A program made the position numbers and the translations under genes. From NCBI RefSeq assembly GCF_029931775.1, contig NC_079312.1, positions 16,871,821 through 16,935,820 of the forward strand: 64,000 nucleotides of DNA, read 5' to 3'. Below the pieces are notes generated by a model, which was given only the letters and a program-made list of their open reading frames with translations, searched no databases and was not told where the DNA came from. The DNA comes from Euleptes europaea. Lineage: Eukaryota; Chordata; Lepidosauria; Squamata; Sphaerodactylidae. Numbering within the stretch: the stretch's first letter is position 1; every line of letters starts with the position of its first letter. Below are positions 801 through 55,735 of the stretch, piece after piece.

Positions 801-1061
801 GATAAATAAAGCTGAAGACCGGGCAAACGGACAAAAGAAAGGTTGGTTGTTAAGTGGAGAGAAAGCAAGGAAAGGGAAGAGGATATGGAGGCTGCTTGGA
901 GGAGGGAAAGAGGAAATAATGTGGGGGAGGGGATACAGGAGGAAAAGTAGTGACCCCAGAAGTCCTTGTGTGTTCCCTGCTTGTAAATTTGATCCTTAGC
1001 TGCTTTCTGTCGGGAAGGGAAGAACTGTGACTATGTTCTTCATTACTTTTCTCCCAAATAG

Positions 1062-2899
1062 GTGCTGAGCAGGTAAAAGAGAAGGAGAAGTCTCTGCCAG
1101 CAGAAAATGCTTCAGTGGTGACCCCAAAAGGGACAGCATTGCAGGGGGTCAAAGAAGGAACTTCCCAGGATCGAAAGGAAGGTGGACAGTATGAGACTTT
1201 GGGACGACCAGGGAGGTCCCAACGAAAACGTTCTCAGAAGAAAGCTGGTCTTTGTGTGGTAAGCCACGACGACCTCTATGAAGAAAGAGTCCAAGAGGGG
1301 AGTCGCAAAGATGGGACTCAGAAGCCACTTCAAGATCAGGCAAGAACCTCCTCCCTTAACACCAGCAAGATAACCCATGCAGCAGCAAAACAGTTTCAAT
1401 TCTCAAACTGTGGGAGAAGCTTCCAGCATTGCGGTCCACTCGTTATACACGAGCGAACCCACACAGGGGAGAAACCCTATGCATGTTCAGTCTGTGGGAA
1501 AGGTTTCAGCTGCAGATCAAACCTTTCTAGCCATCAGAGGGTGCACACAGGAGAAAGACCCTATAAATGTTCTGATTGTGGGAAACGTTTTAAAGCTGCT
1601 TCAGACCTCAAAGGTCACAAAAAGGTCCACACTGGAGAGAAACCATACCCATGTCCAGAGTGTGGGAAAAGGTTTGGTGATAAGGGGCATCTTCTTAGAC
1701 ATGAGAAAACGCACACTCAAGTGAAACCATTCAAATGCTCACACTGTGGAAAGGGCTTCAGAGAGCGAGAGCACCTTATTGTTCATGAGAGAATCCACAC
1801 TGGAGACAAACCTTATAAATGCTCAGACTGTGGGAGAAGCTTCAATTGCCTGTCAAATTTCAATAGGCACAAGAAAATCCACGGAGGAGAGAAACTGCAT
1901 AAGTGTTCAGATTGTGGGAAAAGCTGCAGGAATAAGGCTGACCTTACACTGCATAAGAGAATTCACACTGGTGAGAAACCTTACCACTGCACAGAGTGTG
2001 GGGAAAACTTTCGGAGCAGCTCAAACTTTATAATGCATAAGAGAACCCACCGAGAAGACAAACCATACGAGTGCCTGGAATGTGGCAAACGTTTCCGTCA
2101 TAGGGTTTCTCATATTAACCATGAGCAGAGAATGCATAAATACCGGTGCTCAGGTTGTGGGGAAAGTTTCAGTCAAAGTTCAGCCCTTCAACGTCATACA
2201 ACTAAACACACAGGAGAGAAACCATTTAGGTGCTCACATTGTGGGAAAGGCTTTGATCAGAGAAAAATACTGACTCTGCACGAGAGAATCCACACAAGAG
2301 AGAAAGTGTTCAGTTGTCTAGAATGTGGGAAAGGATTTATAACAAAACCTAAACTTATTCGACATGAGAGAGTCCACACTGGAGAGAAACCATACTCTTG
2401 TTCAGAGTGTGAGAAGAGTTTCAGCGAAAAATCAAGCCTCCGTCAACATATGAGAGTCCACACAGGAGAGAAACCGTACGAATGCTCACTCTGCGGGAAG
2501 AGATTCAGGCAGAGATCGCATTTTGTTGCGCATGAGAAATTCCACCCTGGAAAGGAATCCTATGAGTGTTCAGAGTGTGGGAAAAGCTTCAACAATTCCT
2601 TAAGTTTGCTGAGACATCAGAAGATCCACATGGGTGAAACCCCCTATAAATGCTTGGAATGTGGGAAAAGCTTTGCCTCAAAGCGCAGTCAAGAGCGACA
2701 TCAAAGAATCCACACAGGAGAGAAGCCATATCAGTGTCGGGATTGTGGGAAGAGGTTCCGTTTCAAAGCAAACCTGCGGACACATGAAAAAGGACACACT
2801 GGAGAGAAGCCATTTAAATGCATGGAGTGCGGCAAAAGCTATTTTAGTAGTTCAGGCCTCATTAACCACCATAAAATCCACGCAGGAGAAAACATCTAA
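1062..2899 (+). CDS. Gene A: C2H2 zinc-finger exon (18 fingers), 5' exons outside window
   Basis: This is the 3' coding exon of a KRAB-type zinc-finger gene, predicted to encode a nuclear DNA-binding repressor. The acceptor AG is at 1060-1061 and the reading frame is open from the splice site (phase 1; first residues AEQVKEKEKS), so no internal methionine is needed. A spacer of about 110 residues ends near AAKQFQFSNC. Eighteen C2H2 units of 28 residues follow, joined by TGEKP-type linkers. Finger 1 has lost its first zinc cysteine (FQFSNC against FQCSNC in paralogues). Finger 7 has Cys in place of the core Phe (CGKSC). Finger 9 uses an HX4H spacing and joins finger 10 through a short linker. 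Compared with gene C, a 2-nt deletion near 2888 gives an early stop, so the last finger is lost. The KRAB exons should lie upstream of base 1. Confidence 0.93.
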
Positions 2900-3117: not shown

Positions 3118-3630
3118 CTGTTGAACACATGAATTTGCCTTATACTGAATCAGACCCTTGGTCCATCAAAGTCAGTATTGTCTACTCAGACCAGCAGCAG
3201 TTCTCCAGGGTCTCACAGGCAGAGGTCTTTCACATCACCTACTTGCCTAGTCCCTTTAACTCACTGGTTCCCAACCAGGGGTCCGTGGACCCCCAGGGGT
3301 CTGCGAGAACTAAATTAAGGTCCGTGAAACAAAGTTATAAACCCATAATAAATTAATATTTTCAATTAAATGTTCTCTATTATAAAATATATATATTCAA
3401 ATATTATTCTAAGTTTAATGTTTAACTAACAGTTATGATTAAAGTTTATTTTCAAATTCTCAGAATTTTTATTATGAACCTTGGGGTCCCTGCACCGAAC
3501 AAAAAAGTCCTAGTGGTCCCTGGTCAAAAAAAGGTTGGGAACCACTGCTTTAATTGGAGATGCCAGGGATTGAACTTGGGATCTTCTGCATGCCAAGCAG
3601 ATGCTGTACCACTGAGCCACAGCCCAACTC
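3118..3630 (-). mobile_element. tRNA-derived squamate SINE, split by a hAT MITE
   Basis: Read on the minus strand, the head carries an A-box-like run (gctgtggctcagtggtacag) and a B box (gttcaatccctgg). The body ends in the phrase complementary to cttatactgaatcagaccct. The same SINE lies 3' of finger exons C, D and the remnant at 55 kb, so it predates those duplications. A MITE (3262-3547) interrupts it. Confidence 0.8.
3262..3547. mobile_element. hAT-type MITE with 8-bp target repeats
   Basis: The 14-15-bp terminal inverted repeats are near perfect (cactggttcccaacc and ggttgggaaccactg). The flanking 8-bp copies ctttaact and ctttaatt differ at one base. The interior is AT-rich and non-coding. 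It is inserted into the SINE at 3118-3630, so it is younger than that SINE, and it is absent from the paralogous SINEs at 34.4 and 48.1 kb. Confidence 0.85.
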
Positions 3631-3856: not shown

Positions 3857-3871
3857 CAGAACTGTAGCATT

Positions 3872-4109
3872 GGTTCTCATAGGTTATCCAGGATGTGTAA
3901 CCGTGGTCTTGGTATTTTCTTTCCTGACGTTTCGCCAGCAGCTGTGGCCGGCATCTTCAGAGGAGTAACACATTGTGTTACTCCTCTGAAGATGCCGGCC
4001 ACAGCTGCTGGCGAAACGTCAGGAAAGAAAATACCAAGACCACGGTTACACAGCCCGGATAACCTACGAGAATCAATGAACTCTGACCGTGAAAGCCTTC
4101 GACAATATT
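3872..4109 (+). mobile_element. Penelope-like element fragment: inverted pLTR pair with tail
   Basis: Two arms of about 101 bp (3872-3972 and 3974-4074) are almost perfect reverse complements around a one-base centre. A tail of about 35 bp (4075-4109) follows on the right only. The whole is bounded by a 15-bp target repeat, cagaactgtagcatt, at 3857-3871 and 4110-4124. The paralogous flanks of genes C (about 34868) and D (about 48497) are uninterrupted at this site. Inverted pLTR copies, a short one-sided tail and hammerhead motifs are known hallmarks of Penelope-like elements. No reverse transcriptase is present. Confidence 0.75.
3982..4024 (+). ncRNA. Hammerhead ribozyme-like fold (right arm; mirror copy on minus strand at 3922-3964)
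   Basis: The invariant core CTGAAGA (CUGANGA) lies at 3986-3992. Stem II pairs 3994-3999 (gccggc) with 4007-4012 (gctggc), with one G-U pair and a seven-base loop. GAAA is at 4013-4016. A minimal two-base-pair stem III (AC/GU) comes next, then the cleavage base C at 4020. Stem I pairs tcct (3982-3985) with agga (4021-4024). The very short stem III matches the minimal hammerheads described in Penelope-like elements, which are thought to act as dimers. Activity is not shown. Confidence 0.7.
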
Positions 4110-4744: not shown

Positions 4745-6065
4745 TTACTAAGAGCCAGCATAGGTTTCTCAAGAAGTCATGTCAGACTAATCTTATCTCC
4801 TTTTTTTGGAGAAAGTTACTACCTTGCTGGATCAGGGGAATGCAGTAGACATAGTTTATCTAGATTTCAGTAAGGCTTTTGATAAGGTTCCCATAATATT
4901 CTTGTTGACAAATTAGGAAAATGTGATTTAGATCCTGTTACTGTTAGGTGGATCTGTAATTGGTTGACAGATCGCACCCAAAGATGGAACCCAAATGGTT
5001 CCTCATCTACTTGGAGAGGAGTGACTAGCAGAGTGCCTCAGGGATCTGTCCTGGGCCTTGTGTTGTTCAATATCTTTATAAATGATTTAGATGAAGGAAT
5101 AGAGGGGATGCTTATTAAATTTGCAGATAATACTAAATTGGGACGGGTAGCAAATATGGTAGAAGACAGAGCCAGGATGCAGGATGATCTTGACAGGCTG
5201 GAGAATTGGGCTAAACCCAATAAAATGCATGTCAACAGAGATAAATGTAAAGTTCTGCATTTAGGTAGGAAAAATCAAAGGCATAATTATAGGATGGGGG
5301 AGATTTGTCTCAGCAGTAGTGTGTGCGAAAAGGCTCTTGGGGTCTTAGTAGACCAAACACTGAACATGAGTCAGCAGTGTGATGCAGTAGCTAAAAAGGC
5401 AAATGCGATCTTGGGCTGCATCAACAAAAGTATAGTGTTCAGATCACATGAAGTGATGGTATTGCTTTAATCTGCTCTGGTTAGACTTACCTAGAGTATT
5501 GTGTTGTTTTGGGCACCACAATTTAAGAAAGATGTGGACAAGCTACAACATGTCTAGAGGAGGGCAACAAAGATGGTGAGGGGTCTGGAGACCATCCTAT
5601 GAGGAGAGGTTGAAGGAGCTGGGTATGTTTAGCCTGAAGAGGAGAAGACTGAGAGGGGATAAGATAACCATCTTCAAGTACTTGAAGGGATGTCATATAG
5701 AGGATGGTACCATTTCTGTTGCCTCAAAAGGTCAGACCAGTACCAACGGGTTAAAATCAAAAGAGTTTCCATCTAGACATTAGAAAGAATTTTCTAACAG
5801 AGCGGTTCCTCAGTGGAACACGCTTCCTTGGGAGGTGGTGGGCTCTCCTTCCCTGGAGGTTTTAAAGCAGAGGCTAGATGGCCATCTGTCAGCATTGCTG
5901 ATTCTGTGACCTTAGGCAGTTCATGAGAGGGAGGGCATCTTGGCCATCTTCTGGGCATGGAGTAGGGGCTGCTGGGTATGTGTGTGTGGGGGGGAGGTAG
6001 TTGTGAAATTCCTGCATTGTGCAGGGGGTTGGACTAGATGACCCTGGTGGTCCCTTCCAATTCTA
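4745..6065 (+). mobile_element. CR1 LINE, 3' part
   Basis: This is the C-terminal half of a CR1 reverse transcriptase: the frame 4964-5470 contains [19 protein letters not shown] and, in place of the catalytic FADD, FADN (diverged). It continues into the CR1 3' UTR with ggttggactagatgaccctg and ends at the attctatgat tail. It is truncated at the 5' end and interrupted by stops, so it is a dead copy. Related CR1 pieces lie 3' of B, C and E. Confidence 0.88.
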
Positions 6066-6151: not shown

Positions 6152-6632
6152 TGTCAGACTTCAGTACCTCGTTGCATCTCAGTAATAGTAAACTTCACTC
6201 CATACGTTGCAGAGAGTTTAAAGTTTTATTTAAGAAAGCAAACGGGTTCAGTAGGTCTATACAAACTTAAGGTCACAATACAGATGGGGGAAATACTGGT
6301 TGTCTTTATAGGGGACATGCAATAGGATTGATTACACTAATGTCAGAACACAAAAGGCTGAGGTGCAGCGGAGCTGTCTTGGATGGGAAGGATACAAGTT
6401 TACAATAAGGAGGTGTTTGCCGGAGATTACCCATTAGACACATACTTGTGAAATTGACTAGTAAATGACCGGGCGATCTCTCGGCTCTCAGGCATTGTTC
6501 CGCGGCCCCAGAGGCTTAACAGCGGAACTCTATTGAAACGCTGATGTCGAGCGGGTGAAACAAAGGGCACGGGGGGGGGGGAGCTACACGGAGCCTGCTT
6601 ATCCGGGGCTTGACTGGACGCCCTCGCTGACA
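6152..6632 (-). repeat. Chromovirus 3' LTR
   Basis: It begins tgtcag and ends ctgaca on the plus strand. On the element strand it carries a TATA-like box (ccctataaag) and a polyadenylation signal (aataaa) near the R/U5 side. It matches the LTR at 10392-10873. Confidence 0.9.
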
Positions 6633-7363
6633 CTCCGCCTCCCCAAAGACCCCTCCTTGGGGTTTCTCAGTTTGGCGGGGTAATGCCGATGGAATTCCGC
6701 TACCAGGTTGGGGGCTTTTACGTGCACAGCGGACACCCACTCATCGTGGCTGGAGTTCAGATGTTTCCAATGCACAAGATACTCCAGCTGGCCCCGCCGC
6801 ACCCGAGAATCTAACACCTTGGAGATCTCAAAGTGCTGTTCCCCTTGCACCATAATTGGGGTCGCAGCTGCTGGTTCCGGGTGCCATTCAGGGGCCAGTA
6901 CAAAGGGTTTTAACAGACTCACATGGAATACTGGGTGCACCCCCTGTAAGGTTTTTGGCAGTTCCAACTCCACAGTAACCTCATTGATAACCTGGGAGAT
7001 TGGGAACAGCCCCACAAATTTTTGACTCAGTTTCTTGCACAGACGTAAAGACCTGAAATTTTTGGTGGAAAGGTATACCTTCCCTCCGACCTTTAATTCC
7101 CATTGGGGCGCCCTGTGTTTGTCTGCCTGCGTCTTGTATCTCTCCTTCGCCTGCTCCAAATTTTTTATAAGCCAGGGCCAAGTGTTCCTCACTGTGTTGG
7201 CCCATACTGACACCTCGGGGGGGGGGGGTCGCCACTCAGCGGGAGGGGTACGGCTCCTAAGGGCCCGAATTCCATTCCATAGACCGCTTTGAAAGGGCTT
7301 ATACCAGTAGCAGAGTGTACCGAGTTATTATAGGCATATTCCGCCAATGGCAGCAGGTCGACC

Positions 7364-8684
7364 TGAAGTGGGTCGTGCTGTTCAGATGACAGGCTCTTAG
7401 AATGTTTCACTTACTGAGAAGTGAAGGTATCTTATTCAGCCAGTCATTGATTAAGCAGGACTCAACAACTTTACTTACTTTTAAAAAGCAAGTCTTTTTA
7501 TTGATAAAAATGCAGATTATCAAGTCTTTAACACTTCTATAAAATGCAGATTATCAAGTCTTTAACACTTCTACAAAAACTCTTATAAAAATACAATGTA
7601 TGTATGTACAATATATGCAGTAAAAGCAAGCAAGTCTTACATACTATTCAGTTTCAAAATCCAACTTCTAAAATATAACAGTCAAATTATTCTGATTCAG
7701 TTCCAAGTATCTAATTCACAAAGTCTAGAGTAAAGTATTTAAACCATACATATCATTCAGCCTTTTCTGAGAGCCTTTTGGAAGGTTCTAAATCTCTGGG
7801 CTAACTGTAGCTGTATTTACACTGTTTCTAGACTCATTAAGAGTGAAGAGAAATCTTTTATCCCCACTTTCTTATCCATCAAGAGGGATACCTTTTATTC
7901 CCTCTGTCAGATATGATGAGCAGTTCAGTAATGTTTTAGTAGCAGCTGCTCAGCTCTCCACGACCATATATGGGCTTCCTTTCCTTTCAGTCTATTTTGC
8001 TTAAAGTATAAACACTTATTTCTGAGTTTCATGATCACATTATATGCATAATTTTTACACCATCCTCTTTGTTAGGACAATACACATTAAATGAGACTAC
8101 TTAGAAATATGTAGCACAACATTTAACTATATAACTCATAAAACACAATTATAATTTACATTTATCACTTGCAAAGTGACATTGTTTACATTGGTCAGTT
8201 GCATAGCCTTGAGTGAGATTACAGAAGAGCAAGAAAGCATATTATTCATATCTTTGAGAGAACTTTAATGCCTTTAAGCTATAAAAAGCAAAGTTTAAGC
8301 TATTAATGCACTCTTAGTACATTAAGATATCTTGAGACCTTGAGAAGGGCAAAAGTGTTCTGCTTTTGAGATTCTGACAGCTGGCAGCTGAATCAGAAAG
8401 GTGATTTTGGTTACATCTTATTGATAGATAAGGAAAGGTGCTCTGCTCTTCCCCTTCAAGGACAAGACCAGAGTGACATAATTAGTTAGCTTCTTGATAG
8501 AGCTGACCTTGAGAGAATTCTGTCAGCATTTTGTAAGCTGACAGGCTTTTCATTACACATTACACAAACTTCTGCAGTATGTGGCTCAGTTTGCATGTTA
8601 TGTTCAAGCTCTACATATGGAATTACATGGAATTAATTCTGCACATGTTCACAAAATACCATGATTATGTCAGAGACCGTGACA
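7364..8684 (-). mobile_element. Nested solo LTR (family unknown)
   Basis: A 1,321-bp AT-rich block interrupts the integrase region. On the minus strand it runs from tgtcacgg to cccacttca, giving TG...CA ends, and it has an aataaa signal near its 3' end. A 4-bp target repeat, gacc on the plus strand, flanks it (7360-7363 and 8685-8688). A short tandem repeat of about 37 bp lies near 7510-7580. No coding domain is seen, so a solo LTR is the simplest reading. Confidence 0.6.
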
Positions 8685-10391
8685 GACCCAATTGTCCTGG
8701 TGGTAATTTACAAAACAGTGCATGCAACACTCTACTACAGCTTTAACCCTTTCGGTCTGCCCATCTGTCTGTGGGTGATAGGCCAAAGACAAACCCTGTT
8801 GCACACTCACAAGTCCTAAAAATGCTTTCCAAAACTTTGACACGAAAACGGACCCCCTGTCACTCATGACCTTCTGCGGAAAGCTGTGTAATCTGAAGAT
8901 CTGGTGCACAAATAAGCGAGCCAGTTTGTGTGCAGAGGGCATCCCCTCGCACAGAACGAGATGAACTTGCTTTGAGAAGAGATCTGTGCCGTAAGGGCAT
9001 GCTTAATAGCCATGGCTTCCTTTCCCCCAATCGGCCAGTTTAGCTCCGGGCCGGAGAATTTCCTTAAAATTTCCATGAAATGGCCCATCCTCCCACACTG
9101 GAGACATGCTCCTTCCTTGAAACGGCGTGCCCTGTCCAGGCTGAAGGCCCCTTGGTTCCTTCTGTCTCGCCGCAGTTCAGCTGCAGTGCCCCCTTTGGCG
9201 GGAGCTGCAGGGGGTACCTTTGACGGGCTATCCTTGGAGAACTGGAGGGTTAGCTTGCGATTCTCCACCAAGGCCGCCAGTTTAATCCAGTCCTCTACCG
9301 ACTCTGGGTCTCCCAGGGTTAAACAGCCGTCCAGCACTTCCCAACGCAGTCGTTCGCGGAAGTGCTGGACCTTGGTGGCTGCACTCCATGCCCTTATCTT
9401 GCAGGATAGCGATTGAAAGTCCTGGGCGTACTCACTTACTGAGTGGGCCCCCTGCTTCAAATGACGCATGGCAATCTTTGCCTTCTCCCCCCCTATGAGG
9501 GTCCTCGAAATGGGGTCGCAAAGCAGACATAAAGTCATTCAGGGACTTCAAGACCCTGGGCATAGTCTCTGCCACCGTCACTGCCCATTCCACTGCCTCC
9601 TTCTCTAGTAGGCTGATCACTTACTTGACCCGGGCTTCCTCCGAGGGAAAGGTCTCTCCTTGATCCTTCATGAAACCAGACACTTGGAGTAGGAAATGGG
9701 GTAGCTGTGTGCTGGATCCGTCGAAGAACACCTTCAGATCCCTGGCAGTAGGGCGCCTGGGTGGGGGCGCCTCCCTGCAGACGGGTGGTTCCGCGGCAGG
9801 TAGGGAGCTGGCTCGGGGTTGCTGCGAGGGCTGTCTGAGCTCTCTCACTACCCCCAAAAATGCAGTCAAATTCCTCTGCAGAGCGCACAGCTGTGCCTGC
9901 AGGTCCTGGTTCTGTAGGGTCAACGTCTGGTTCTGTTCATGTAGCAGGATAATTTCCTCCGTGGTGATGGCGGCTGGGGTGGTCATAGCATGGATGATTG
10001 AGGGTCCTTCCAACCATTCTCTAGGCACAACCTCTCGGTTCCACTCTTCCCCTTCACCGTACCAGGTGGTTAGCGGTCCCGGTAGAAACCGCCACATGGG
10101 TCCGATGCTGCCCGTTCGCTGGCCCCGACTCTCCGTCGCTGCTCTGCTTGCGTGGGCAAGGAGGTCCACATCGGCATCCCAGGGAAGTCGGTAAGCCTGG
10201 GCAGGCGCTGCTCCAGGGTCGTTTCTTCCAGACCAATATCGATAAGGAGGGTTGCCCCTCGTTCGTCGCTCTGGCGGAGGTCTTCCCCCATAAGGAGCGA
10301 CTGTGTGGATCGCGCAGACATACTAATACTAACTATTTACTAAACACAAAAATAAAAAAGAAAGCTAAGGAATTCTGAGATTCTGACCTAC

Positions 10392-13711: not shown

Positions 13712-13935
13712 AGTGTGTGCAAAGTGCCTTCAAGTCGCAGCCCACTTATGGCGACCCCCTTTTGGGGGTTTTCATGGCAAGAGACTAACAGAGGTGGTTT
13801 TGCCAGTGCCTCCCTCTGCACAGCAACCCTGGACTTCCTTGGTGGTCTCCCATCCAAATACTAACCAGGGCTGACCCTGCTTAGCTTCTGAGATCTGATG
13901 AGATCAGGCTAGCCTGGGCCGTCCAGGTCAGGGCC
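13712..13935 (-). mobile_element. 5S rRNA-derived SINE in intron 1 of gene B
   Basis: On the minus strand the head is 5S-like (agatctcagaagctaagcag, then ttggatgggagacc). A body with ctcttgccatgaaaacccc and a BovB-like ending follow. It is flanked by a target repeat of about 9 bp (tttcttatg). Module E has the same insertion (61348-61540). Modules C, D and the minus-strand dead module are empty at this site. Confidence 0.85.
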
Positions 13936-15618
<1,683 letters not shown>

Positions 15619-17275: not shown

Positions 17276-17758
17276 ATTTTTTTTAAATATTATTAAAAAT
17301 AATAAATTAATTAATTGCATGATAACACAAGCGGAAGAAAACTGATAACCTGGAATGTCTGGATTCTCCATTTCAAGGCTGATTTAACACAGAATGGCAT
17401 GAGCAGCCAGACTGTTCCCTAGTAGAATCAGCCCAGGTGTGGCGATGGCTGTCACTGGGTGCCGCACAGCTTGTCTGGGCCCAGAAGGAGCCTCCGTACA
17501 ACTTGTGCGACTTGGCCAAAGAGCCTGGCAGTGCCCTCCACGCAACTCCTCTGAGCAGTTTGTATTGTACAACATTTGAAAGTTGGCCAGACTTGGGAAA
17601 GAGGAAATAATGTGGGGAGGGAGATACAGGAGGAAATGAAGTGACCCCAGAAGTCCTTGTGGGTTCCCTGCTTGTAATGTCCACATTTGGTCCTTAGCTG
17701 CTACCTTCTGACAAGAAGGGAAGAATGTGAATATGTTCATTACTTTTCTCCCAAATAG
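17276..17758 (+). other. Intron flank before finger exon B
   Basis: Conserved module sequence ending in the polypyrimidine tract and acceptor of the finger exon. No gene is seen. Confidence 0.6.
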
Positions 17759-19137
17759 GTGCTGAGCAGGTCAAAGAGAAGGAGAAATCTCTGCCAGCAG
17801 AAAATGCTCCACCGGTGACCCCAAAAGGGACAGAATTGCACTGGGTCATAAAGGGAACTTCCCAGGATCAGAGGGGAGGGGAACAATCTGAGACTCAGGA
17901 AAGTCCAGGGAGGTCCCAACAAAAACGTCCTCAGAAGAAAGTCAGTTTTTGTGTGGAAAGCCATAATGACCACCATGAAGAAAGAGTCCAAGAGGGGAGT
18001 CGCAAAGATGGGACTCAGAAGCCACTCAAAGATCAGGCAAGAGCCTCCTCCCTTTATACCAGCAATGCAACGCATGCAGTAGCAAAACGGTTTCAATGCT
18101 CAAACTGTGGGAGAAACTTCATGTATCACAGTGTACTTGTTATACACGAGCGAACCCACACAGGGGAGAAACCCTTTGCGTGCTCAGTCTGTGGGAAATG
18201 TTTCAGATGCAGATCAACCCTTTTTCACCATCAGAGGGTGCACACAGAAGAAAAACCCTATAAATGTTCCGATTGTGGGAAAAGTTTTAAAACGGCTTCA
18301 TATTTCAAAGGTCACAAAAAGGTCCACACAGGAGAGAAAGTGTTCAACTGTCTAGAATGTGGGAAAGGATTTATAACAAAACCTAAACTTATTCGACATG
18401 AGAGAATCCACACCGGAGAGAAACCATACTCTTGTTCAGAGTGCGAGAAGAGCTTCAGCGTAAAATCAAGCCTCCTTCAACATATGAGAATGCACACCGG
18501 AGAGAAACCGTACAAATGTTCACTCTGCGGGAAGAGCTTCAGCGTAAAATCAAGCCTTGCTGTGCATGAGAAATTCCACCCAGGAAAGGAATCCCATCAG
18601 TGTTCAGAGTGTGGGAAAAGCTTCAACAATCCTTTACGCTTCCTGAAACATCAGAAGATCCACACAGGTGAAACTCCCTATAAATGCTTGGAGTGTGGGA
18701 AAAGCTTTGCCTCAAAGCGCAGTCAAGAGCAACATCAAAGAATCCACACAGGAGAGAAACCATACCAGTGTCTGGACTGTGGGAAGAGATTCAGTTATCA
18801 ATCAAACCTGCAGGTACATAAAAAAAGACACACTGGAGAGAAACCCTTTAAATGTATGGAGTGCGGCAAAGGCTATATTACTAGTTCAGGCCTCATATAC
18901 CACCATAAAATCCACACAGGAAATAAACAATCTGAATGCTCAGATGAGGGGGAAGGTTCCAGAAAGAGGACTGATCTGCCCCAATGTAAGAGAGCCCGCA
19001 CACAGGGAAAAACCTTTTCAATGTTTACAGTGTGGGAAGACGTTTGTGAAGAAAGCAAATCTGGCTGCGCACAAGAAAATGCACAGATGAGAAGCATTAG
19101 AAAACAAGCTGAAAAGGAATCTTTGCTGAGGTCATAA
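17759..19137 (+). CDS. Gene B C2H2 zinc-finger exon (10 fingers)
   Basis: This is the terminal coding exon. The acceptor AG is at 17757-17758 and the frame is open from the splice site (AEQVKEKEKS). After a basic spacer it encodes ten C2H2 units of 28 residues, from FQCSNC to FKCMEC. Against C and D, fingers 4-11 are absent, an in-frame loss of eight units. The region after finger 10 reads LPQCKRARTQGKTF and runs to a stop at 19135-19137, because a 1-nt insertion relative to gene C puts the ancestral last finger out of frame. Gene E shows the same shift, so it predates the B/E duplication. Spliced with 13229-13243, 14782-14908 and 15619-15744, the protein would be 548 aa. It is predicted to be a nuclear DNA-binding repressor. 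Confidence 0.93.
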
Positions 19138-19228: not shown

Positions 19229-20112
19229 GCAGGGGAATGGTGTAGACATAGTTTATCTTGATTTCAGTAAGACTTTTGATAAAGTTCCCCATAATATTCT
19301 TGTTGACAAATTGGGAAAATGTCGTTGAGATCCTATTACTGTTAGGTGGATCTGTAACTGGTTGACACCCAAAGAGTGCTTGTTAATGGTTCCTCATCCA
19401 CTTGGAGAGGAGGGACTAGTGGAGTTCCTCAGGAATCTGTTCTGGGCCCTGTGTTGTTCAACATCTTTACAAATGATTTGGGTGAAGGAATAGAGGGGAT
19501 GTTTATTAAATTTGCAGATGATACTAAATTGGGAGGGGTAGCAAATACGGTAGAAGACAGAGCCAGGATACTGGCTGATCTTGACAGGTTGGAGAATTGG
19601 GCTAAACCCAATAAAATGCATTTCAACAGAGATAAATGTAAAGTTCTGCATTTAGGTGGGAAAAATCAAATAATTATAAAATGGGTGAGACATGTCTGAG
19701 CAGTAGTGTGTGTGCAAAGGATCTTGGGGTATTAATAGACCAAACACTGAACATGAGTCAGCAGTGTGATGTGGTAGCTAAAAAGGCAAATGCGATCTTG
19801 GGCTGCATCAACAGTACTATAGTGTCCAGATCACATGAAGCTCTTCTCTGCTCTGGTTAGACCTCACCAAGAGTACTGTGTTCAGTTTTGAGCACCACAA
19901 TTTAAGAAGCATATAGACAAGCTGGAATGTGTCCAGAGGAGGGCGACAAAAATGGTGAGGGGTCTGGAGACCAAGTCCTATGAAGAAAGGTTAAAGGAGC
20001 TGGGTATGTTTAGCCTGAAGAGGAGAAGACTGAGAGGTTATATGATAACCACCTTTAAGTACTCGAAGGGCTGTCACATAGAGTGTGGTGCTGAATTGTT
20101 TTCTGTTGCCCC
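19229..20112 (+). mobile_element. CR1 LINE fragment 3' of gene B
   Basis: The reverse-transcriptase part contains [20 protein letters not shown] and an intact FADD motif ([10 protein letters not shown]), followed by CR1 downstream coding sequence. It is 5'-truncated and broken by stops. The same insertion, with the same flank, lies 3' of gene E on the minus strand, so it predates the B/E duplication. Confidence 0.87.
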
Positions 20113-20262
20113 AGAAGGTTCAATAGAGCATGCCAAAGTACCAACAGAATCAATACTCTTAACTTTAGATGTAACATCTTTATATACTAAAATACCTCAT
20201 GATGAAGCCCGCATAATGGCAGAGGAAATATTTGACTCTAGAATTTCAGTGAGCCCCTCCAA
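20113..20262 (+). mobile_element. Penelope-like reverse transcriptase fragment
   Basis: About 150 bp between two CR1 pieces encode [17 protein letters not shown]. This matches motif A of Penelope-like reverse transcriptases (pattern DVSSLYTNIPH) and not CR1. It reads in the same frame as the CR1 upstream by chance. It is too short to place in a subfamily. Confidence 0.6.
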
Positions 20263-21590
20263 CAATGGAGGGATGTAAGCAGTGGGGTCCCTCAGGGAAC
20301 TGTATTGGGACCGGTGCTTTTCAACCTGTTCATCCGTGACCTGGAGTTGGGGGTGAAAAGCGAGGTTGCCAAGTTTGCAGATGACACCAAATTATTTAGA
20401 GTGGTTAAAACAAGAACAGACTGTGAAGAGCTCCAAAAGGATCTCTTCAAACTGGAAGAATGGGCATTAAAATGGCAAATGAGATTCAATGTGCGCAAGT
20501 GAAAAGTAATGAACGTTGGGGCACAAAAAATCCCAACTTCACATATACACTGATGGAATCTGTGCTGGAAGCGACAGACCAAGAAAGGGGGTAGTGGATA
20601 GCTCAATGAAGATGTCAACCCATTTGTGAAAAAGGCAGATTTCATGCTGGCCATAATTAGACGAGGATCAAAAATAAAACTGCTGCTTTCATACTGCCTT
20701 TGTACAAATCTGTGTTGAGACCACACTTGGAATACTGTGTACAGTTCTGGTCACCACACCTAAAAAAAGAATATTGCAGAGCTTGAGAAGGTGTAGAAAA
20801 GAGCAACCAAAATGGTCAGAGGACTAGAGCAACTCCCCTATGAGTAGGCTTGCCAGGCCCCGTAACTCCACTGGCGGGAGCTTTCTCGGGACCTGGCTGC
20901 GGAGCCTGGCTCCATAGAGTTTTAGCTGGTGTTGTGTCCACGTCGCGTCCGGGCGCGTGCAGCACCAATGTGCACATGTGTGTCTTGCCCGCTGGCCCTC
21001 AGCTGGTCAGCGGGCAGCTCGGTGGTTGGGTGGGATTTTACTCGCCACCACCAGGCACTTGGCAACCCTACCTATGAGGAGCAGTTAAAACGCTTAGAGA
21101 TGTTTAACTTGGAAGGGTGGTTAAGGGGAGACATGATAGGAGCTATAAAATGTCTATAAAATATAGGATGTCTATAAAATTCTGCATGGTGTGGAGAGAG
21201 TAGACAGGGAGAAGCTCTTCTCCCTCTCCCATAATACCAGAACACAGGGTCATCTGCTGAAGCTGGAGGGTGAGAGATTCAAAGCATAAAAGGAAGCATT
21301 TGTTCACACAATGCATAGTTAAACTGTGGAACTCCCTGCCCCAGGATGTGGTGATTACTGCCAATTCGGAAGGCTTTAAGAGGGGAGTGTGCATGTTCAT
21401 GGAGGAGAGGGGTATTCATGGCTACTAGTCATGATGCATCCCTATTCTCTCCAGGATCAGAGGAGCATGCCTAGTATACTAGGTGCTGTGCAACCCAGGC
21501 AGAATAATGGTGCTGCAGTTGTCAGGTTTGTGGGCTTCCTAGAGGCAGCTGGTTGGCAGCCTAACCACTGATCACCTCCTGTTGACCCCA
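20263..21590 (+). mobile_element. CR1 LINE, 3' part, split by a MITE
   Basis: The reverse-transcriptase end reads [20 protein letters not shown] with FADDTKLF. It is followed by the 3' region with tgtggaactccctgccccag and ctagaggcagctggttggc. It is a dead, diverged copy from a different CR1 lineage than the one at 19229. A 226-bp MITE is inserted at 20845. Confidence 0.85.
20845..21070. mobile_element. hAT-like MITE (TAGGSTTGCCA ends), 8-bp target repeat
   Basis: The ends taggcttgcca and tggcaaccctac form terminal inverted repeats. A perfect 8-bp target copy, cctatgag, lies at 20837-20844 and 21071-21078. Removing the insert restores normal CR1 sequence. A longer relative is at 50858-51742. 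Confidence 0.82.
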
Positions 21591-24770: not shown

Positions 24771-26721
<1,951 letters not shown>

Positions 26722-31916: not shown

Positions 31917-32137
31917 GGGGGAGGGGCTGTGGCTGAGTGGTGGAGCATCTGCTTGGCATGCAGAAGGTCCCAGGTTCAATCCCCAGTGGCATCTCCAGTT
32001 AAAGGGACCAGGCAAGTAGGTGACATGAAAGACCCCTGCCTGAGACCCTGGAGAGCCACTGCCGGTCCGAGTAGACAATACTGACTTTGATGGACCAAGG
32101 ATCTGATTCAGTAGAAGGCAGCCTCTTGTGTTCATGA
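31917..32137 (+). mobile_element. tRNA-derived squamate SINE
   Basis: The head gctgtggctgagtggtggag and B box ggttcaatcccc lead to a body with gagtagacaatactgacttt, ending cttgtgttcatg. It is shared with gene D (45557-45797) and absent from gene A. Confidence 0.82.
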
Positions 32138-32353
32138 GTGGAGAAAAGAAAACTTGGTTGTTAAGTGGGGAGAAGAGAAGAAAGCAAGGAAAGAGGAAAT
32201 AATGTGGGGAGGAGATACAGGAGGAAATGAAGTGACCCCAGAAGTCCTTGTGGGTTCCCTGCTTGTAATGTCTAAATTTGGTCCTTAGTTCCTACCTTCT
32301 GAAGAGAAGGAAAGAATTGTGACTATGTTCTTCATCACTTTTCTCTCAAATAG

Positions 32354-34347
32354 GTGCTGAGCAGGTAAAAGAGAAGGAGAAATCTCTGCAAGCAGAAAAT
32401 GCTCCACTGGTGACCCCAAAAGGGACAGCATTGCAATGGGTCAGAGAGGGAACTTCCCAGGATTGCGGGGAAGGGGGACAATATGAGATTCGGAGAGGGT
32501 CAGGGATGTCCCAACAAAAACGTTCTCAGAAGAAAGCCGGTCTTTGCGTGGAAAGCCACGATGACCTCTATGAAGAAAGAGTGCAAGAGGGGAGTCGCAA
32601 AGATGGGACTCAGAAGCCACTCAAAGATCAGGCAAGAACCTCCTCCCTTAACACCAGCAAGATAACCCATGCAGCAGCAAAACGGTTTCAGTGCTCAAAC
32701 TGTGGGAGAAGCTTCCACTATCGCGGTCTGCTTGTTATACACGAGCGAACCCACACAGGGGAGAAACCCTATGCATGTTCAGTCTGTGGGAGAAGTTTCA
32801 GCTGCAGATCACAACTTTTTAGACATCAGAGGGTGCACATAGAGGAAAGGCCGTATAAATGTTCTGATTGTGGGAAAAGTTTTAAAGCTGCTTCAGACCT
32901 CAAACGTCACAGAAAGGTCCACACTGGAGAAAAACCACATCCATGTCCAGAGTGTGGGAAAAGCTTTGGTGATAAGGGGCATCTTGTTAGACACAAAAAA
33001 ACCCACACTCAAGTGAAACCATTCAAATGCTCACACTGTGGAAAGGGCTTCAGAGAGAGAGGGAGCCTTAGTGTTCATGAGAGAATCCACACGGGAGACA
33101 AGCCTTATAAATGCTCAGACTGTGGGAGAAGCTTCAGTTGTCTGGCAAATTGCATAACACACAAGAAAATCCATGGAGGAGAGAAACTGTATAAGTGTTC
33201 AGATTGTGGGAAAAGCTTGAGGAATAAGTCAAGCCTTACAGTGCATAAGAGAATTCACACTGGTGAGAAACCTTACCACTGCACAGAGTGTGGGGAAAAC
33301 TTTCGGAGCAGCTCAAACTTTATAAGGCATAAGAGAACCCATCGAGGAGACAAACCATATGAGTGCCTGGAATGTGGCAAACGTTTCCGTCTTAGGTCTT
33401 CCCATATTCGCCATGAGCAGAGAATGCATAAATACCAGTGCCCTGATTGTGGGGAAAGTTTCAGTCAAAGTTCAGCCCTTCAACATCATACAAGTAAACA
33501 CACAGGAGAGAAACCATTTAGGTGCTCACATTGTGGGAAAGGCTTTGATCAGAGAAAATTACTGACTCTGCACGAGAGAATCCACACGAGAGAGAAAGTA
33601 TTCAATTGTCTAGAATGTGGGAAAGGTTTTATAACAAAAGCTGATCTTATTCGACATGAGAGAATCCACACAGGAGAGAAACCGTACTCTTGTTCAGAGT
33701 GCGAGAAGAGCTTCAGTGTAAAATCAAGCCTCCATCAACACATGAGAGTCCACACAGGCGAGAAACCATACAAATGCTCGCTCTGCGGGAAGAGATTCAG
33801 GCAGAAATCGAGTCTTGCTATACATGAAAAATTCCACCCCAGAAAGGAATCCCATGAATGTTCAGTCTGTGGGAAAAGATTCAACAATCCTTTGCGCTTG
33901 CTGAGACATCAGAAGATCCACACGGGTGAAACTCCCTATAAATGCTTGGAATGTGGGAAAAGCTTTGCCTCAAAGCGCAATCAAGAGCAACATCAAAGAA
34001 TCCACACAGGAGAGAAACCATACCAGTGTCTGGACTGTGGGAAGAGATTCAGTTATCAATCAAACCTGCAGGTACATAAAAAAGGACACACTGGAGAGAA
34101 GCCGTTTAAATGCATGGAGTGCGGCAAAAGCTTTATTAGTGGTTCAGGCCTCATAAACCACCATAAAATCCACACAGGTGAGAAACCATCTAAATGCTCA
34201 GATGAGGGGGGAGGTTCCAGAAAGAGCACTGACTTGCCCCAAAGGGAAAAAGTCCACACACAGGAAAAACCTTTTCAGTGTGCATGGTGTGGGAAGACGT
34301 TTGTGAAGAAAGCACATCTGGCTGCACATGAGAAAACACACAGATGA
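32354..34347 (+). CDS. Gene C C2H2 zinc-finger exon (19 fingers)
   Basis: This is the most complete array in the window. The acceptor AG is at 32352-32353, and the open frame runs from AEQVKEKEKS through a basic spacer to nineteen C2H2 units. Fingers 1-18 match A and D one for one. After an acidic/serine interval (SDEGGGSRKSTDL) comes finger 19, FQCAWCGKTFVKKAHLAAHE, and the natural stop. Finger 9 has HX4H spacing and a short linker to finger 10. Finger 7 has Leu for the core Phe. With 24756-24770, 26028-26154, 27632-27757 and 28752-29054 the protein is 854 aa, or 812 aa if KRAB-B is skipped. It is predicted to be a nuclear sequence-specific repressor; the target is unknown. Confidence 0.95.
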
Positions 34348-34427: not shown

Positions 34428-34645
34428 ACATGAACACGTGAAGCTGCCTTATACTGAATCAGACCCTTGGTCCATCAAAGTCAGTATATTGTCTACTCAG
34501 ACCAGCAGCGGTTCTCCAGGGTCTTAGGCAGGGTCTCACCTAATGACCTTGTCTCTTTAACTGGAGATGCCAGGGATTGAACCTGGGACCTTCTGCATGT
34601 CAAGCAGATGCTCTGCCACTGAGCCTCAGCCCAACTCAGTTTCCT
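34428..34645 (-). mobile_element. tRNA-derived squamate SINE 3' of gene C
   Basis: Read on the minus strand it has the same head, B box and end as the SINE 3' of gene A. It is at the same place relative to the gene and lacks the hAT insertion. Confidence 0.82.
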
Positions 34646-35344
34646 TCAAGAACAGGGCTGATATTCCCTCCTTAATTTCTATGGGCCCATCCCAGCTTCC
34701 TTTTCACACCAACCCATAGCTTTCTGTGCCCACCCCAATATTATTTTGTAGGGGCTCTGCCCCTCTGCATATTCCATGGGCTAATCCCCAAAGCAGAGTA
34801 TTTTAAACATATTTTGTTTGACAGAAAACACACACACAAAAACTATTCTGTCAAAGAGATCAACCAGAAATGTAGGATTTGTGTTTTAATTAGTTTTATT
34901 AAGAAATTCAGACAAATACTACATGTTTTGGGTATATAACATGATGTAACCATTTTATATGTGTATATAGTGAAGAATCAACTGTTAACAACAAATGAGG
35001 AATTAAATGACAAATATTAAATAGCAGTTAATTAGGGAAAATAATGTTAAATAACAGTTAATTAGGGAAATTAGTGGTCTAAAGCTTCTAACACAGGCTT
35101 GTGAGGCACAGTGCACTCAACCTACACTATTTAGTGTTATTTTGTGTATTCCATGGAAGTATGATTGCTGAAAGCCGTTCTGTCTCTTGCCGAAAGCATC
35201 GCAGCAATACCTGATGAAGCAGCAGCCAGAATGATCATCCTGTTTTGGCAAGCTGTAGCCAAAAGCAAATTAAGAAATGTCTTTCCTAGCCCCCCAGAGT
35301 GGCATCTGTGAAAACTGTGGAACTCACTGCCACTGATTACTAAG
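34646..35344 (+). other. Gene C 3' flank
   Basis: AT-rich, shared with the 3' flank of gene A. It contains the empty site for the Penelope-like insertion near 34868. No gene is seen. Confidence 0.6.
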
Positions 35345-45426: not shown

Positions 45427-45556
45427 TGGGGAGGGGGTGTGGCTCACTAGTAGAGCCTCTGCTTGGCATGCAGAAGGTCCCAGGTTCAATCCCCAGTGGC
45501 ATCTCTAGTTAAAGGGACGAGGCTAGCAAGTGATGAGAAAGAGACCCTGGAGAGCG
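45427..45556 (+). mobile_element. tRNA-derived SINE, 3'-truncated
   Basis: The head ggtgtggctcactagtagag and B box ggttcaatcccc are present. The body breaks off and joins a second copy of the same family. Confidence 0.75.
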
Positions 45557-45797
45557 ATGGAGAGGGGCTGTGGCTGAGTGGTAGAGCCTCTGCTTGGCAT
45601 GCAGAAGGTCCCAGGTTCAATCCCTGGAATCTCCAGTTAAAGGGACCAGACAAGTAGGTGACGGGAAAGACCCCTGCCTGAGACCCTGGAGAGCCGATGC
45701 CGGTCTGAGTACCATTCTTGATTCCATGGAGTAGACAATACTGACTTTGATGGACCAAGGGTCTGATTCAGTAGAAGGCAGCCTCTTGTGTTCATGA
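45557..45797 (+). mobile_element. tRNA-derived squamate SINE with small insert
   Basis: The head gctgtggctgagtggtagag and end tcttgtgttcatg match the copy at 31917. A short extra stretch (about 45708-45727) interrupts the body. Confidence 0.8.
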
Positions 45798-46013
45798 GTG
45801 GAGAAAAGAAAACTTGGTTGTTAAGTGGGGAGAAGAGAAGAAAGCAAGGAAAGAGGAAATAATGTGGGGAGGAGATACAGGAGGAAATGAAGTGACCTGA
45901 GAAGTCATTGTGGGTACCCTGCTTACAATGTCTAAATTTGGTCCTTAGTTCCTACCTTCTGAAGAGAAGGAAAGAATTGTGACTATGTTCTTCATCACTT
46001 TTCTCCCAAACAG

Positions 46014-47905
46014 GCGCTGAGCAGGTAAAAGAGAAGGAGAAATCTCTGCAAGCAGAAAATGCTCCACTGGCAACCCCAAAAAGGACAGAATTGCAATGGG
46101 TCCAAGAGGGAAATTCCCAGGAATGGGGGGAAGAGGGACAATATGAGACTCAGAGAGGGCCATTGAGGCACCAAAGAAAGCAACCTCAGAAGAAAGCCAG
46201 TGCTTGCGTCGAAAGCCACAACGACCGCCATGAAGAAAGAGTCCAAGAGGGGAGTCGCAAAGATGGGACTCAGAAGCCACTCAAAGATCAGGCAAGAACC
46301 TCCTCCCTTAACACCAGCAAGACAACCCATGCAGCAGCACAACCGTTTCAATGCCCACATTGTTGGAGGAGCTTCAAGCATCACGGTCCACTTGCTATAC
46401 ACGAGCGAACCCACACAGGAGAGAAACCCTATGCATGTTCAGTCTGTGGGAAAAGTTTCAAGTCTACATCAAACCTTTCTAGCCATCAGAGGGTGCACAC
46501 AGAGGAAAGGCCGTATAAATGTTCCGATTGTGGGAAAAGTTTTAAAGCTGCTTCAGGCCTCAAACATCACAAAAAGGTCCACACTGGAGAGAAACCATAT
46601 CCATGTTCAGAATGTGGGAAAAGGTTTGGTACTAACAACCATCTTGTTAGACACGAGAGAACCCACACTCAGGTGAAACCATTCAAATGCTCACACTGTG
46701 GAAAGGGCTTCAGATTGCGAGACAGCCTTGTTGTTCATGAGAGAATCCACACAGGAGACAAACCTTATAAATGCTCAGACTGTGGGAGAAGCTTCAATTG
46801 CCGGTCAAATTTCAGTAGGCACAAGAAAATCCATGGAGGAGAGAAACTGTATAAGTGTTCAGACTGTGGGAAAGGCTGGAGGAATAAGGCAGGCCTTACA
46901 GTGCATGAGAGAATTCACACTGGTGAGAAACCTTACCACTGCACAGAGTGTGGGAAAAACCTTCGGTGCAGTTCAAGCTTTATAATGCATAAGAGAACCC
47001 ACCGAGGAGACAAACCATATGAGTGCCTGGAATGTGGCAAACGTTTCCGTCATAGGGTTTCTCGTATTAACCATGAACGGAGAATGCATAAACATCAGTG
47101 CTCAGTTTGTGGGGAAAGTTTCAGTCAAAGTTCAGCCCTTCAACGTCATACAACTAAACACACAGGAGAGAAACCATTTAGGTGCTCACATTGTGGGAAA
47201 GGCTTTGATCAGAGAAAAATACTGACTCTGCACGAGAGAATCCACACAAGAGAGAAAGTGTTCAGTTGTCTAGAATGTGGGAAAGGATTTATAACAAAAC
47301 CTAAACTTATTCGACATAAGAGAGTCCACACTGGAGAGAAACCATACTCTTGTTCAGAGTGCGAGAAGAGTTTCAGCGAAAAATCAAACCTCGGTCAACA
47401 TGAGAGAGTCCACACAGGAGAGAAACCGTACAAATGCTCGCTCTGCGGGAAGACATTCAGGCAGAAATCGAGTCTTGCTATACATGAAAAATTCCACCCA
47501 GGAAAAGAATCCCATGACTGTTCAGAGTGTGGGAAAAGCTTCAGCAATCCTTTACGCTTGCTGAGACATCGGAAGATCCACACAGGTGAAACCCCCTATA
47601 AATGTTTGGAATGTGGGAAAAGCTTTTCTTCAAAGTGGGGTCAACAGCAACATCAAAGAATCCACACAGGAGAGAAGCCATACCAGTGTCTGGACTGTGG
47701 GAAGAGGTTCCATTTCAAAGGAAACCTGCAGGAACATGAAAAAGGACACACTGGAGAGAAGCCGTTTAAATGCATGGAGTGCGGCAAAAGCTTTATTAAT
47801 AGTTCAAGCCTCATAAGCCACCATGCAATCCACACAGGAAAGAAACCATCTGAATGCTCAGATGAGGGGGAAGGTTCTAGAAAGAGGACTGACCTGCCTC
47901 AATGA
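46014..47905 (+). CDS. Gene D C2H2 zinc-finger exon (18 fingers)
   Basis: The acceptor AG is at 46012-46013, and the frame is open from AEQVKEKEKS. A spacer of about 115 residues is followed by eighteen C2H2 units in the same order as A and C. Finger 1 is FQCPHCWRSF (Trp in place of the usual Gly), finger 7 has Trp and finger 8 has Leu for the core Phe. The frame ends at a TGA (47903-47905) just after RKRTDLPQ, where gene C continues into finger 19. Remnants of that finger lie out of frame to about 48000. With the upstream exons (38467-38481, 39699-39825, 40688-40813, 41716-42018, 42964-43266) the protein is 921 aa. It is predicted to be a KRAB-dependent nuclear repressor. Confidence 0.94.
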
Positions 47906-48077: not shown

Positions 48078-48292
48078 GTCTGTTGAACACATGTACACAT
48101 GAAGCTGCCTTATAGTGAATCAGACCCTTGGTCCATCAAAGTCAGCATTGTCTACTCAGACCAGCAGCGGTTCTCCATGGTCTCTCACATAACTTACTTG
48201 CCTAGTCCCCTTTACTGGAGATGCCGGAGATTGAACCTGGGACCTTCTGTATGCCAAGCAGATGCTCTACCACTGAGCCTCAGCCCAACTCA
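48078..48292 (-). mobile_element. tRNA-derived squamate SINE 3' of gene D
   Basis: Same family, place and orientation as the SINEs 3' of genes A and C. Confidence 0.8.
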
Positions 48293-49376
48293 GTTTCCTC
48301 CGACAACAGGGCTGATATTCTCTTCTTAATTCCTCTGGGCCCATCTCAGCTTCACCAGCCCCTTAGCTTTCTGTGCCCACCACCATATTATTTTATAGGG
48401 GCCCTGCCTCTGTACATACTCCAGGGGCTAATTCCCAAAGTAGAGTATTTTACATATATTTTATTTGACCAAAAAAAAATCTATTCTGTCAAAGATATCA
48501 ACTAGAACTGTAGCATTTGGATTTTAATTAGTTTTATTAAGAAATACGTTTTCTTCCATCTCCTCCACTTGAGCATCCTACATAAAGTTCCCCGTGTGTA
48601 GAGCAAAGGCCCTGCGAATCAAGCCAACAGTTTTTTAATGATTATACCGGATATTTATCGATGCTGATTGCAAAACTTAATCGGATGGGAAATAGAAGAC
48701 TCTTAAATTGAAATGGAAAGTCTGTAGGTATTATAGGCGTTATTAGAATAAATACATTCTGGACTAATTGTTAATCACACCTACAGCATCATTTCTGGAT
48801 ACTGAAACGGCCCTTTGGAAATGCTGAGTTCTGTAGATCTTCCAACTTCTCTGCCATATTCCCCGTGTTTTTCATGGATATTTCTACTATTCTACCAGGT
48901 GTTATAGCACCATTACCTAATCTCAAGAGATTCCATGCACATTCACAATGTGTAGCATAACCAGTAAATTGTATGGTTCTATTTTTCCTTCGGCATCATT
49001 TTAGGACGCTACTCCAAATTTATGACGACTTGATGCAGACCTGCAACTAATCAGAGTTAGTTCCTCCTCCTGAGGTAACAAGAAGACACCCCCAGCCAGT
49101 ACAATGGTGACTCCTCCCATAGTTACGTCAGCTTCTGTTTTTTGGCTTCTCTTTTTAATATAGTGATTTTGAATTGCAAGTTGTCTCGAGCAGGATTCTG
49201 AAGAGGTGGCATAAAAATATTCTAAATGAATAAATACACTTAAGTTATTTCTTTGTAAATACTACAGTGTGTGGTCTAAAGCTTTTAACGCAGCCTTGTG
49301 CGACACAGTGCACTCATCCTAAACCTGCATTTAATGTTATTTTGTGTACTTAATGGATGTTTGATTACTGAAAGAG
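48293..49376 (+). other. Gene D 3' flank
   Basis: AT-rich 3' flank shared at first with genes A and C. The part 48600-49130 is unmatched elsewhere in the window. An L2-like tail (gttgtctcgagcaggattct, then ggcataaaaatattctaaat) ends near 49250. No gene is seen. Confidence 0.5.
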
Positions 49377-52699: not shown

Positions 52700-52910
52700 C
52701 TAAAGGGATGGCCCAGCCTAGCCTGATCTGGTCAGATCTCAGAAGCTAAGCAGGGTCAGCCCTGGTTAGTATTTGGATGGGAGACTACTAAGGAATACCA
52801 GGGTTGCTGTGCAGAGGAAGGCACTGGCAAACCACCTCTGATAGTCTCTTGCCATAAAAACCCCAAAAGGGGTCGCCTGAAGGCACTTCACACACACACA
52901 CACACAAAGG
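52700..52910 (+). mobile_element. 5S rRNA-derived SINE
   Basis: The head ctcagaagctaagcagggtc and tatttggatgggagac lead to tctcttgccataaaaacccc and a BovB-like end, then (CA)n. This is an insertion private to this module flank. Confidence 0.85.

Positions 52911-55089: not shown

Positions 55090-55735
<646 letters not shown>

What the first reader, a model, noticed from the sequence alone, without database searches (positions are those of the whole stretch)
3872..4109. Penelope-like inverted pLTR with a hammerhead fold on both strands
The sequence shows 101-bp arms in perfect inverted arrangement, a one-sided 35-bp tail and a 15-bp target duplication. Each arm can fold into a hammerhead with core CTGAAGA, a six-pair stem II, GAAA, a two-pair stem III and a paired stem I. 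Hammerheads in Penelope-like elements are established knowledge. A back-to-back pair means a transcript in either direction carries one ribozyme, and a read-through transcript would form a long hairpin. It sits in the 3' flank of gene A only.
Basis: partly seen in the sequence, partly recalled or inferred. Interest (0 to 1): 0.75.

Follow-up and report, generated by a model that had tools for sequence, protein, structure and literature searches.

The report
Inverted Penelope-like retrotransposon fragment
A 238-base scrap of a known kind of lizard jumping gene (a Penelope-like retrotransposon) landed downstream of a zinc-finger gene as two mirror-image copies of its first part; it is an ordinary member of a known family, but its end points hint at how such mirror-image copies are made.

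Summary
The feature is real and the identification holds: 3872-4109 is a retrotransposed fragment of a Penelope-like element (PLE) of the Poseidon kind. It is a clean 238-bp insertion: paralogous flanks of two other zinc-finger genes in the window show the empty site with one copy of the 15-bp target. The sense arm plus tail aligns without gaps, 86/124 identical, to the template RNA of the in-vitro-active Anolis PLE 'PAc' (PMC11167929). The start codon and the hammerhead cleavage site fall at the same positions. The right end is ORF position 118 (PAc starts reverse transcription at 111-118); the left end is position 83, a 35-nt tail offset (PLE tails: 30-40).

Corrections: the arms are 96% identical (97/101), not perfect. 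The hammerhead is the minimal PLE type: a loopless ACGU stem III, an extra U after A9, and no Rfam hit. PLE hammerheads of this kind are reported to work as dimers or with protein. A read-through RNA folds into a -200 kcal/mol hairpin that buries it, so 'one ribozyme per direction' has little functional meaning.

Head-to-head pLTRs with a one-sided tail are already described for PLEs. What remains open is how they form: double-ended priming (favoured) or cDNA snap-back.

The parts
3857..3871 (.). Left copy of the 15-bp target-site duplication, CAGAACTGTAGCATT; ends in ATT, the motif most often cleaved by the Anolis PLE protein
   Evidence: PMC11167929
3872..3972 (-). Left arm: PLE 5' region (5'UTR end + ORF positions 1-83) in antisense orientation on the + strand, without tail
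3922..3964 (-). Minimal type I hammerhead motif on the - strand (C3 at 3960, ATG 3954-3952, predicted cleavage 3' of 3926)
   Evidence: mirror of the + strand motif
3973..3973 (.). Single-nucleotide centre of the palindrome; the two arms end at the same template position
3974..4074 (+). Right arm: PLE 5' region in sense orientation, ORF positions 1-83 from ATG 3992
3982..4024 (+). Minimal type I hammerhead motif on the + strand: stem I 3982-3985/4021-4024, core CTGAAGA 3986-3992, extra U 3993, stem II 3994-3999/4007-4012, GAA 4013-4015, loopless stem III ACGT 4016-4019, predicted cleavage 3' of C4020
   Evidence: same layout in PAc (PMC11167929)
3992..4109 (+). First 118 nt (39 codons + 1 nt) of the PLE ORF, open, MPATAAGETSGKKIPRPRLHSPDNLRESMNSDRESLRQY; PAc reads MPAIDVGETSGENASGTWPHSPKDIQQPCDPGHESLRQH
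4075..4109 (+). 35-nt one-sided tail; ends at ORF position 118
   Evidence: PAc RT start sites at 111-118 (PMC11167929)
4110..4124 (.). Right copy of the 15-bp target-site duplication
34865..34879 (+). Empty site in the paralogous 3' flank of gene C: single copy of the target, CAGAAATGTAGGATT
48503..48517 (+). Empty site in the paralogous 3' flank of gene D: single copy of the target, TAGAACTGTAGCATT

Best explanation
This is a short, non-coding retro-insertion of a Penelope-like element of the Poseidon type, in what is most likely a squamate genome. Shown here: one clean insertion with a 15-bp TSD into a site that is empty in two paralogues; both arms are the same 5' region of the element (end of the 5'UTR, start codon, first 83 or 118 nt of the ORF); the outer ends fall at ORF positions 118 and 83. 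Inferred: the GIY-YIG endonuclease made a staggered cut leaving 3' overhangs. The bottom-strand 3' end primed reverse transcription at the distal (tailed) start site. The top-strand 3' end (...GCATT) primed at the proximal (tail-less) start site, helped by four complementary bases (CATT to AAUG, ORF 84-87). Both cDNAs ran to the same template end 12 nt upstream of the hammerhead core and were joined head to head. Both arms read through the hammerhead cleavage site, so the template RNA had not been cut by its ribozyme. The copy has no demonstrable function at its present site. (Identity as a PLE insertion: about 0.97. Double-ended priming as the source of the inversion: about 0.5.)
For: Empty sites with one target copy in genes C and D. 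Ungapped 86/124 identity from C3 of the hammerhead to the end of the tail with the PAc template RNA printed in PMC11167929. Same ATG-in-hammerhead layout, and cut site 26 nt after the start codon in both. Stem II keeps pairing with PAc through a two-sided change (G-U against U-G) and a one-sided change (G-C against G-U). Right end = ORF 118 and left end = ORF 83, against PAc start sites at 111-118 and a 30-40 nt tail defined as the stretch between its two RT start sites. PAc protein cuts and extends both target strands with the same start sites, and prefers ATT (PMC11167929). Published PLE anatomy: inverted pLTR, optional 31-bp tail on one of the inverted pLTRs, 8-10-bp TSDs (PMC3846280).
Against: One copy only; no other copy of this family could be fetched, so the tail-less start site of this family is inferred from PAc. 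Two independent cDNAs ending at the same template nucleotide needs a fixed RNA 5' end; a snap-back gives this for free. The inner 79 bp of the arms are identical, which fits self-copying equally well. The bottom-strand cut (...TTCTG) is not at an ATT.
Confidence: 0.55

Rival explanations
1. Same PLE insertion, but the inversion arose by self-priming: one cDNA was made from the tailed start site, its 3' end snapped back (AACAC-ATT-GTGTT, around the centre at 3973), and the hairpin was copied from the top-strand primer, which annealed by the CATT/AATG microhomology.
For: Arms meet with a 1-nt centre and the same inner end; inner 79 bp perfect; 4-nt microhomology at the left junction. Self-priming was proposed for PLE inverted repeats with palindromic junctions, though on an antisense template (PMC3846280).
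Against: Gives no reason why the short arm ends at ORF 83, i.e. one tail length short, an offset of about the same size as PLE tails elsewhere. PAc extends both target strands in vitro.
Confidence: 0.37
2. A bidirectional ribozyme device: the locus makes a self-cleaving RNA in either direction and was retained for that purpose (3' processing of the zinc-finger transcript).
For: Hammerhead core intact on both strands.
Against: Any read-through RNA has the antisense arm first and folds into a -202 to -208 kcal/mol hairpin, against -13 for the hammerhead. Stem III has no loop, and PAc's own hammerhead is inactive without protein. Absent in paralogues C and D. A polyadenylation-like AATAAA lies upstream at 3347.
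Confidence: 0.03
3. A fold-back DNA transposon or MITE with long terminal inverted repeats.
For: Inverted repeat flanked by a direct repeat.
Against: Homology to a PLE 5' region, asymmetric tail, 15-bp TSD, open PLE reading frame.
Confidence: 0.02

Closest known systems
Poseidon_Ac (PAc), Penelope/Poseidon-clade PLE of Anolis carolinensis (PMC11167929)
   Same: 5'UTR-ORF junction with a hammerhead spanning the start codon; ORF start MPA...GETSG...HSP...ESLRQ; cut site 26 nt after the start codon; loopless ACGU stem III; end at ORF 111-118; 30-40-nt tail; ATT target
   Different: 69% identical over 124 nt (86/124); only the 5' region is present; arranged as two inverted arms with nothing between them
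Adineta vaga Penelope families Pen2a/Pen2/Pen5/Pen6 (PMC3846280)
   Same: Head-to-head inverted pLTRs, optional 31-bp tail on one, short TSD, palindromic junction; empty-site proof used for a Pen3a-mobilised gene
   Different: Those copies keep an ORF or cargo between the pLTRs; the TSD here is 15 bp, theirs 8-10 bp
Minimal type I hammerhead ribozymes of PLEs (Cervera and de la Pena 2014; Lunse et al. 2017, both cited in PMC7761336)
   Same: CUGANGA...GAAACGUH with no non-conserved nucleotides in helix III; open stem I
   Different: Published dimeric action needs two sense copies in one RNA; here the two copies lie on opposite strands

Membership tests
Penelope-like element (EN+ canonical, Poseidon type) | Sequence homology of the pLTR/5' region to a known PLE | tested here: met
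   86/124 ungapped to PAc; BLAST of PAc against the window hits 3983-4105, E=4e-14
Penelope-like element (EN+ canonical, Poseidon type) | ORF with telomerase-like RT and GIY-YIG endonuclease | tested here: inconclusive
   Only the first 39 codons are present in this copy, no Pfam hit on them. No matching ORF body was found in the window; the source element could not be searched
Penelope-like element (EN+ canonical, Poseidon type) | Optional 30-40-nt tail ending at an RT start site | tested here: met
   35 nt, ending at ORF 118; PAc 111-118
Penelope-like element (EN+ canonical, Poseidon type) | Short target-site duplication, AT-rich target | tested here: met
   15 bp, confirmed by two empty sites; target ends in ATT
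Penelope-like element (EN+ canonical, Poseidon type) | pLTRs in tandem and/or inverted arrangement | tested here: met
   Inverted, 97/101 identical
Hammerhead ribozyme, minimal type I (PLE) | Conserved core CUGANGA / GAA / A-U 15.1-16.1 / H17 | tested here: met
   Both strands; extra U after A9, shared with PAc
Hammerhead ribozyme, minimal type I (PLE) | Stem II and stem I pairing | tested here: met
   6 and 4 pairs; stem II pairing preserved against PAc with a two-sided change
Hammerhead ribozyme, minimal type I (PLE) | Covariance-model match | tested here: not met
   No Rfam hammerhead at E<=10; PLE types usually lack helix III; no positive control was possible
Hammerhead ribozyme, minimal type I (PLE) | Self-cleavage | not testable with these tools
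   Needs in vitro transcription, with and without PLE protein

The most novel reading that the evidence does not exclude
The copy is a sequence-level fossil of double-ended target-primed reverse transcription: each of the two target-strand 3' ends primed its own cDNA at one of the two RT start sites that PLE RNA offers. This would give the general origin of head-to-head inverted pLTRs with a one-sided tail.
Probability: 0.45. Interest if true: 0.5.

Novelty: new member of a known kind. Interest (0 to 1): 0.3.

Why it matters
As an insertion it is ordinary. Its use is as a clean test case. It has no internal body, an exact empty site and two outer ends that can be mapped to base positions on a PLE RNA. 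How PLEs make inverted pLTRs is unsettled (self-priming was proposed in 2013; extension of both target strands was shown in vitro in 2024). The end positions of copies like this one, counted across a squamate genome, would decide between the two. It also shows two cDNAs reading through an uncleaved hammerhead, in line with in vitro work saying that ribozyme cleavage is not needed for insertion.

Tried and rejected
Searching for relatives: the window's own genome is not held. Pattern scans of viral contigs and prokaryote genomes and a plasmid BLAST gave no PLE; the 18 tail-pattern hits in prokaryotes match only short stretches of about 16-32 nt and were discarded as chance. Rfam at E<=10 gave only long-hairpin microRNA families and one lncRNA, all below their gathering scores, an effect of the near-perfect inverted repeat and not evidence of a microRNA. 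Perreault et al. 2011 was checked for a precedent for the extra U after A9; the passages returned did not describe one. Cervera 2014, Lunse 2017 and Craig 2021 are not held. A foldback/MITE reading was rejected on homology. The idea that the RNA 5' end was made by hammerhead cleavage was rejected: both arms extend 47 nt 5' of the cleavage site.

Full report
What is there. The inverted repeat lies at 3872-3972 / 3974-4074 with a single base (3973) between the arms, a 35-nt tail at 4075-4109 on the right side only, and a 15-bp direct repeat on both flanks. The arms are not perfect: 97 of 101 positions match, and all four mismatches (4053, 4056, 4067, 4073) lie in the outer part; the inner 79 bp are identical. 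If mutations fell uniformly over the 105 aligned positions, all four landing in the outer 26 would have a probability of about 0.003; this is unexplained (see below).

It is one insertion. The 3' flank of the zinc-finger gene at 1031-2899 ('gene A') is paralogous to the flanks of the genes ending near 34347 ('C') and 47905 ('D'). Joining the A flanks and aligning them shows C (89.8% identical over 492 bp) and D (85.5% over 346 bp) running straight through the site with one copy of the 15-mer each, at 34865 and 48503. So the 238 bp plus one 15-mer were gained in A after it split from C and D. Arm divergence (4/105) is lower than A-C flank divergence (about 10%; Fisher p = 0.04), as expected for an insertion younger than the duplication. 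The homologous segment is missing in genes B and E, so nothing can be said there.

What it is. The sense arm plus tail aligns without any gap to the template RNA of PAc, the Poseidon element of Anolis carolinensis whose sequence is printed in PMC11167929: 86 of 124 nt identical from the hammerhead C3 to the end of the tail. An ATG at 3992 opens a frame that runs to the end of the insert, MPATAAGETSGKKIPRPRLHSPDNLRESMNSDRESLRQY, against PAc MPAIDVGETSGENASGTWPHSPKDIQQPCDPGHESLRQH. [quoted passage not shown] both are true here. The insert ends at ORF position 118 on the right; PAc reverse transcription starts at positions 111-118, and its tail is the stretch between its two RT start sites. The left arm ends at ORF position 83, giving a 35-nt offset, within the 30-40 nt stated for PLE tails. 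Inverted pLTRs with an optional 31-bp tail on one of them and a short TSD are the described anatomy of Penelope elements in Adineta vaga and other animals (PMC3846280). The finding is therefore a new member of a known kind.

The hammerhead. On each strand: CTGAAGA, one extra U, a six-pair stem II, GAA, ACGT, and GTC before the cleavage point (4020 on +, 3926 on -). A strict descriptor (core, stem II of at least 4 pairs, stem III of at least 2 pairs, stem I of at least 3) finds only these two sites in 64 kb, and one in 100 dinucleotide shuffles of the window. Against PAc, stem II keeps its pairing through a two-sided change at pair 4 (G-U against U-G) and a one-sided change at pair 5 (G-C against G-U). 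The extra U and the loopless stem III are shared with PAc. PLE hammerheads are described as minimal type I motifs usually lacking the non-conserved nucleotides of helix III, thought to act as dimers in tandem (PMC7761336; PMC6466107); PAc's is inactive without the element's protein. No Rfam hammerhead model reports it even at E up to 10. The predicted lone fold of one arm is not the hammerhead (-15.8 against -13.0 kcal/mol) and is not significantly more stable than shuffles (z = -1.36). So the motif is real, but monomeric self-cleavage should not be expected.

What the back-to-back arrangement does. On either strand the antisense arm is transcribed first and the sense hammerhead second. The read-through RNA folds into one long hairpin (-202 and -208 kcal/mol). 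The ribozyme is buried, and no RNA from this copy carries two sense hammerheads that could dimerise in cis.

How it was probably made. With a TSD, both target strands end in 3' overhangs at the break. The top strand ends ...GCATT-3' and is followed by antisense PLE sequence; the bottom strand ends ...TTCTG-3' and is also followed by antisense PLE sequence. That is what two reverse-transcription reactions, one on each target strand, would leave. PAc protein cuts and extends both strands with no difference in start site, and prefers ATT. The top-strand end CATT is complementary to AAUG at ORF 84-87, just downstream of the left arm's first copied base (sequence). Against this, both arms end at the same template base, which needs a fixed RNA 5' end; a cDNA snap-back would give the shared inner end and identical arms directly, and self-priming has been proposed for PLE palindromes. 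I favour double-ended priming (about 0.5) over snap-back (about 0.37) because the short arm ends one tail length short. One copy cannot settle it. The excess of mismatches in the outer arm parts fits neither model specifically; conversion between the arms near the palindrome centre, or a template switch, are possible and untested.

Template state. Both arms extend 47 nt upstream of the hammerhead cleavage site, so the RNA that was copied had not been cleaved there. This agrees with the in vitro result that unprocessed RNA is the main substrate.

Limits. The source genome is not held, no eukaryotic collection is available, and no relative was found in viral, plasmid or prokaryote data. 'Squamate' is an inference from similarity to the Anolis PLE and from the repeat content. 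The statement that tail-less copies of this family end near ORF 83 rests on PAc and on general PLE descriptions, not on other copies of this family.

Noticed in passing
3266-3547: hAT-like MITE in the 3' flank of gene A, with terminal inverted repeats CAGTGGTTCCCAACC and an approximate 8-bp duplication CTTTAAYT, absent from the paralogous flanks of C and D.
   Followed up: partly
1031-2899(+), 17731-19137(+), 32323-34347(+), 45983-47905(+), 55824-57560(-): Tandem cluster of C2H2 zinc-finger genes (Pfam on the first ORF); a KRAB box at 14659-15087 and similar exon-like ORFs near 25905, 39576, 50003(-) and 60687(-).
   Followed up: partly
4886-5470 (+); similar at 19230-19981 and 55307-55723: Non-LTR (LINE) reverse transcriptase fragment repeated next to three of the zinc-finger copies, 85-87% identical (RVT_1).
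   Followed up: partly
20154-20275 (+): Short frame [26 protein letters not shown] resembles, from memory, the PLE reverse-transcriptase motif; no Pfam hit. Possibly a scrap of another PLE, cut by a LINE.
   Followed up: partly
3555-3626(-), 31923-31994, 34562-34633(-), 45433-45504, 45564-45635, 48216-48287(-): Six tRNA-like sequences of one kind without signs of being genes, probably heads of a tRNA-derived SINE.
   Followed up: no
13815-13926(-), 52701-52812(+), 61350-61456(+): Three 5S rRNA-like sequences, probably 5S-derived SINE heads.
   Followed up: no
6599-10322 (-): Decayed chromodomain LTR retrotransposon (Tf2-1-like SH3, Chromo, weak gag).
   Followed up: partly
4053-4073 against 3873-3893: All four mismatches between the arms lie in the outer 26 bp (p about 0.003 if uniform); unexplained.
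   Followed up: partly
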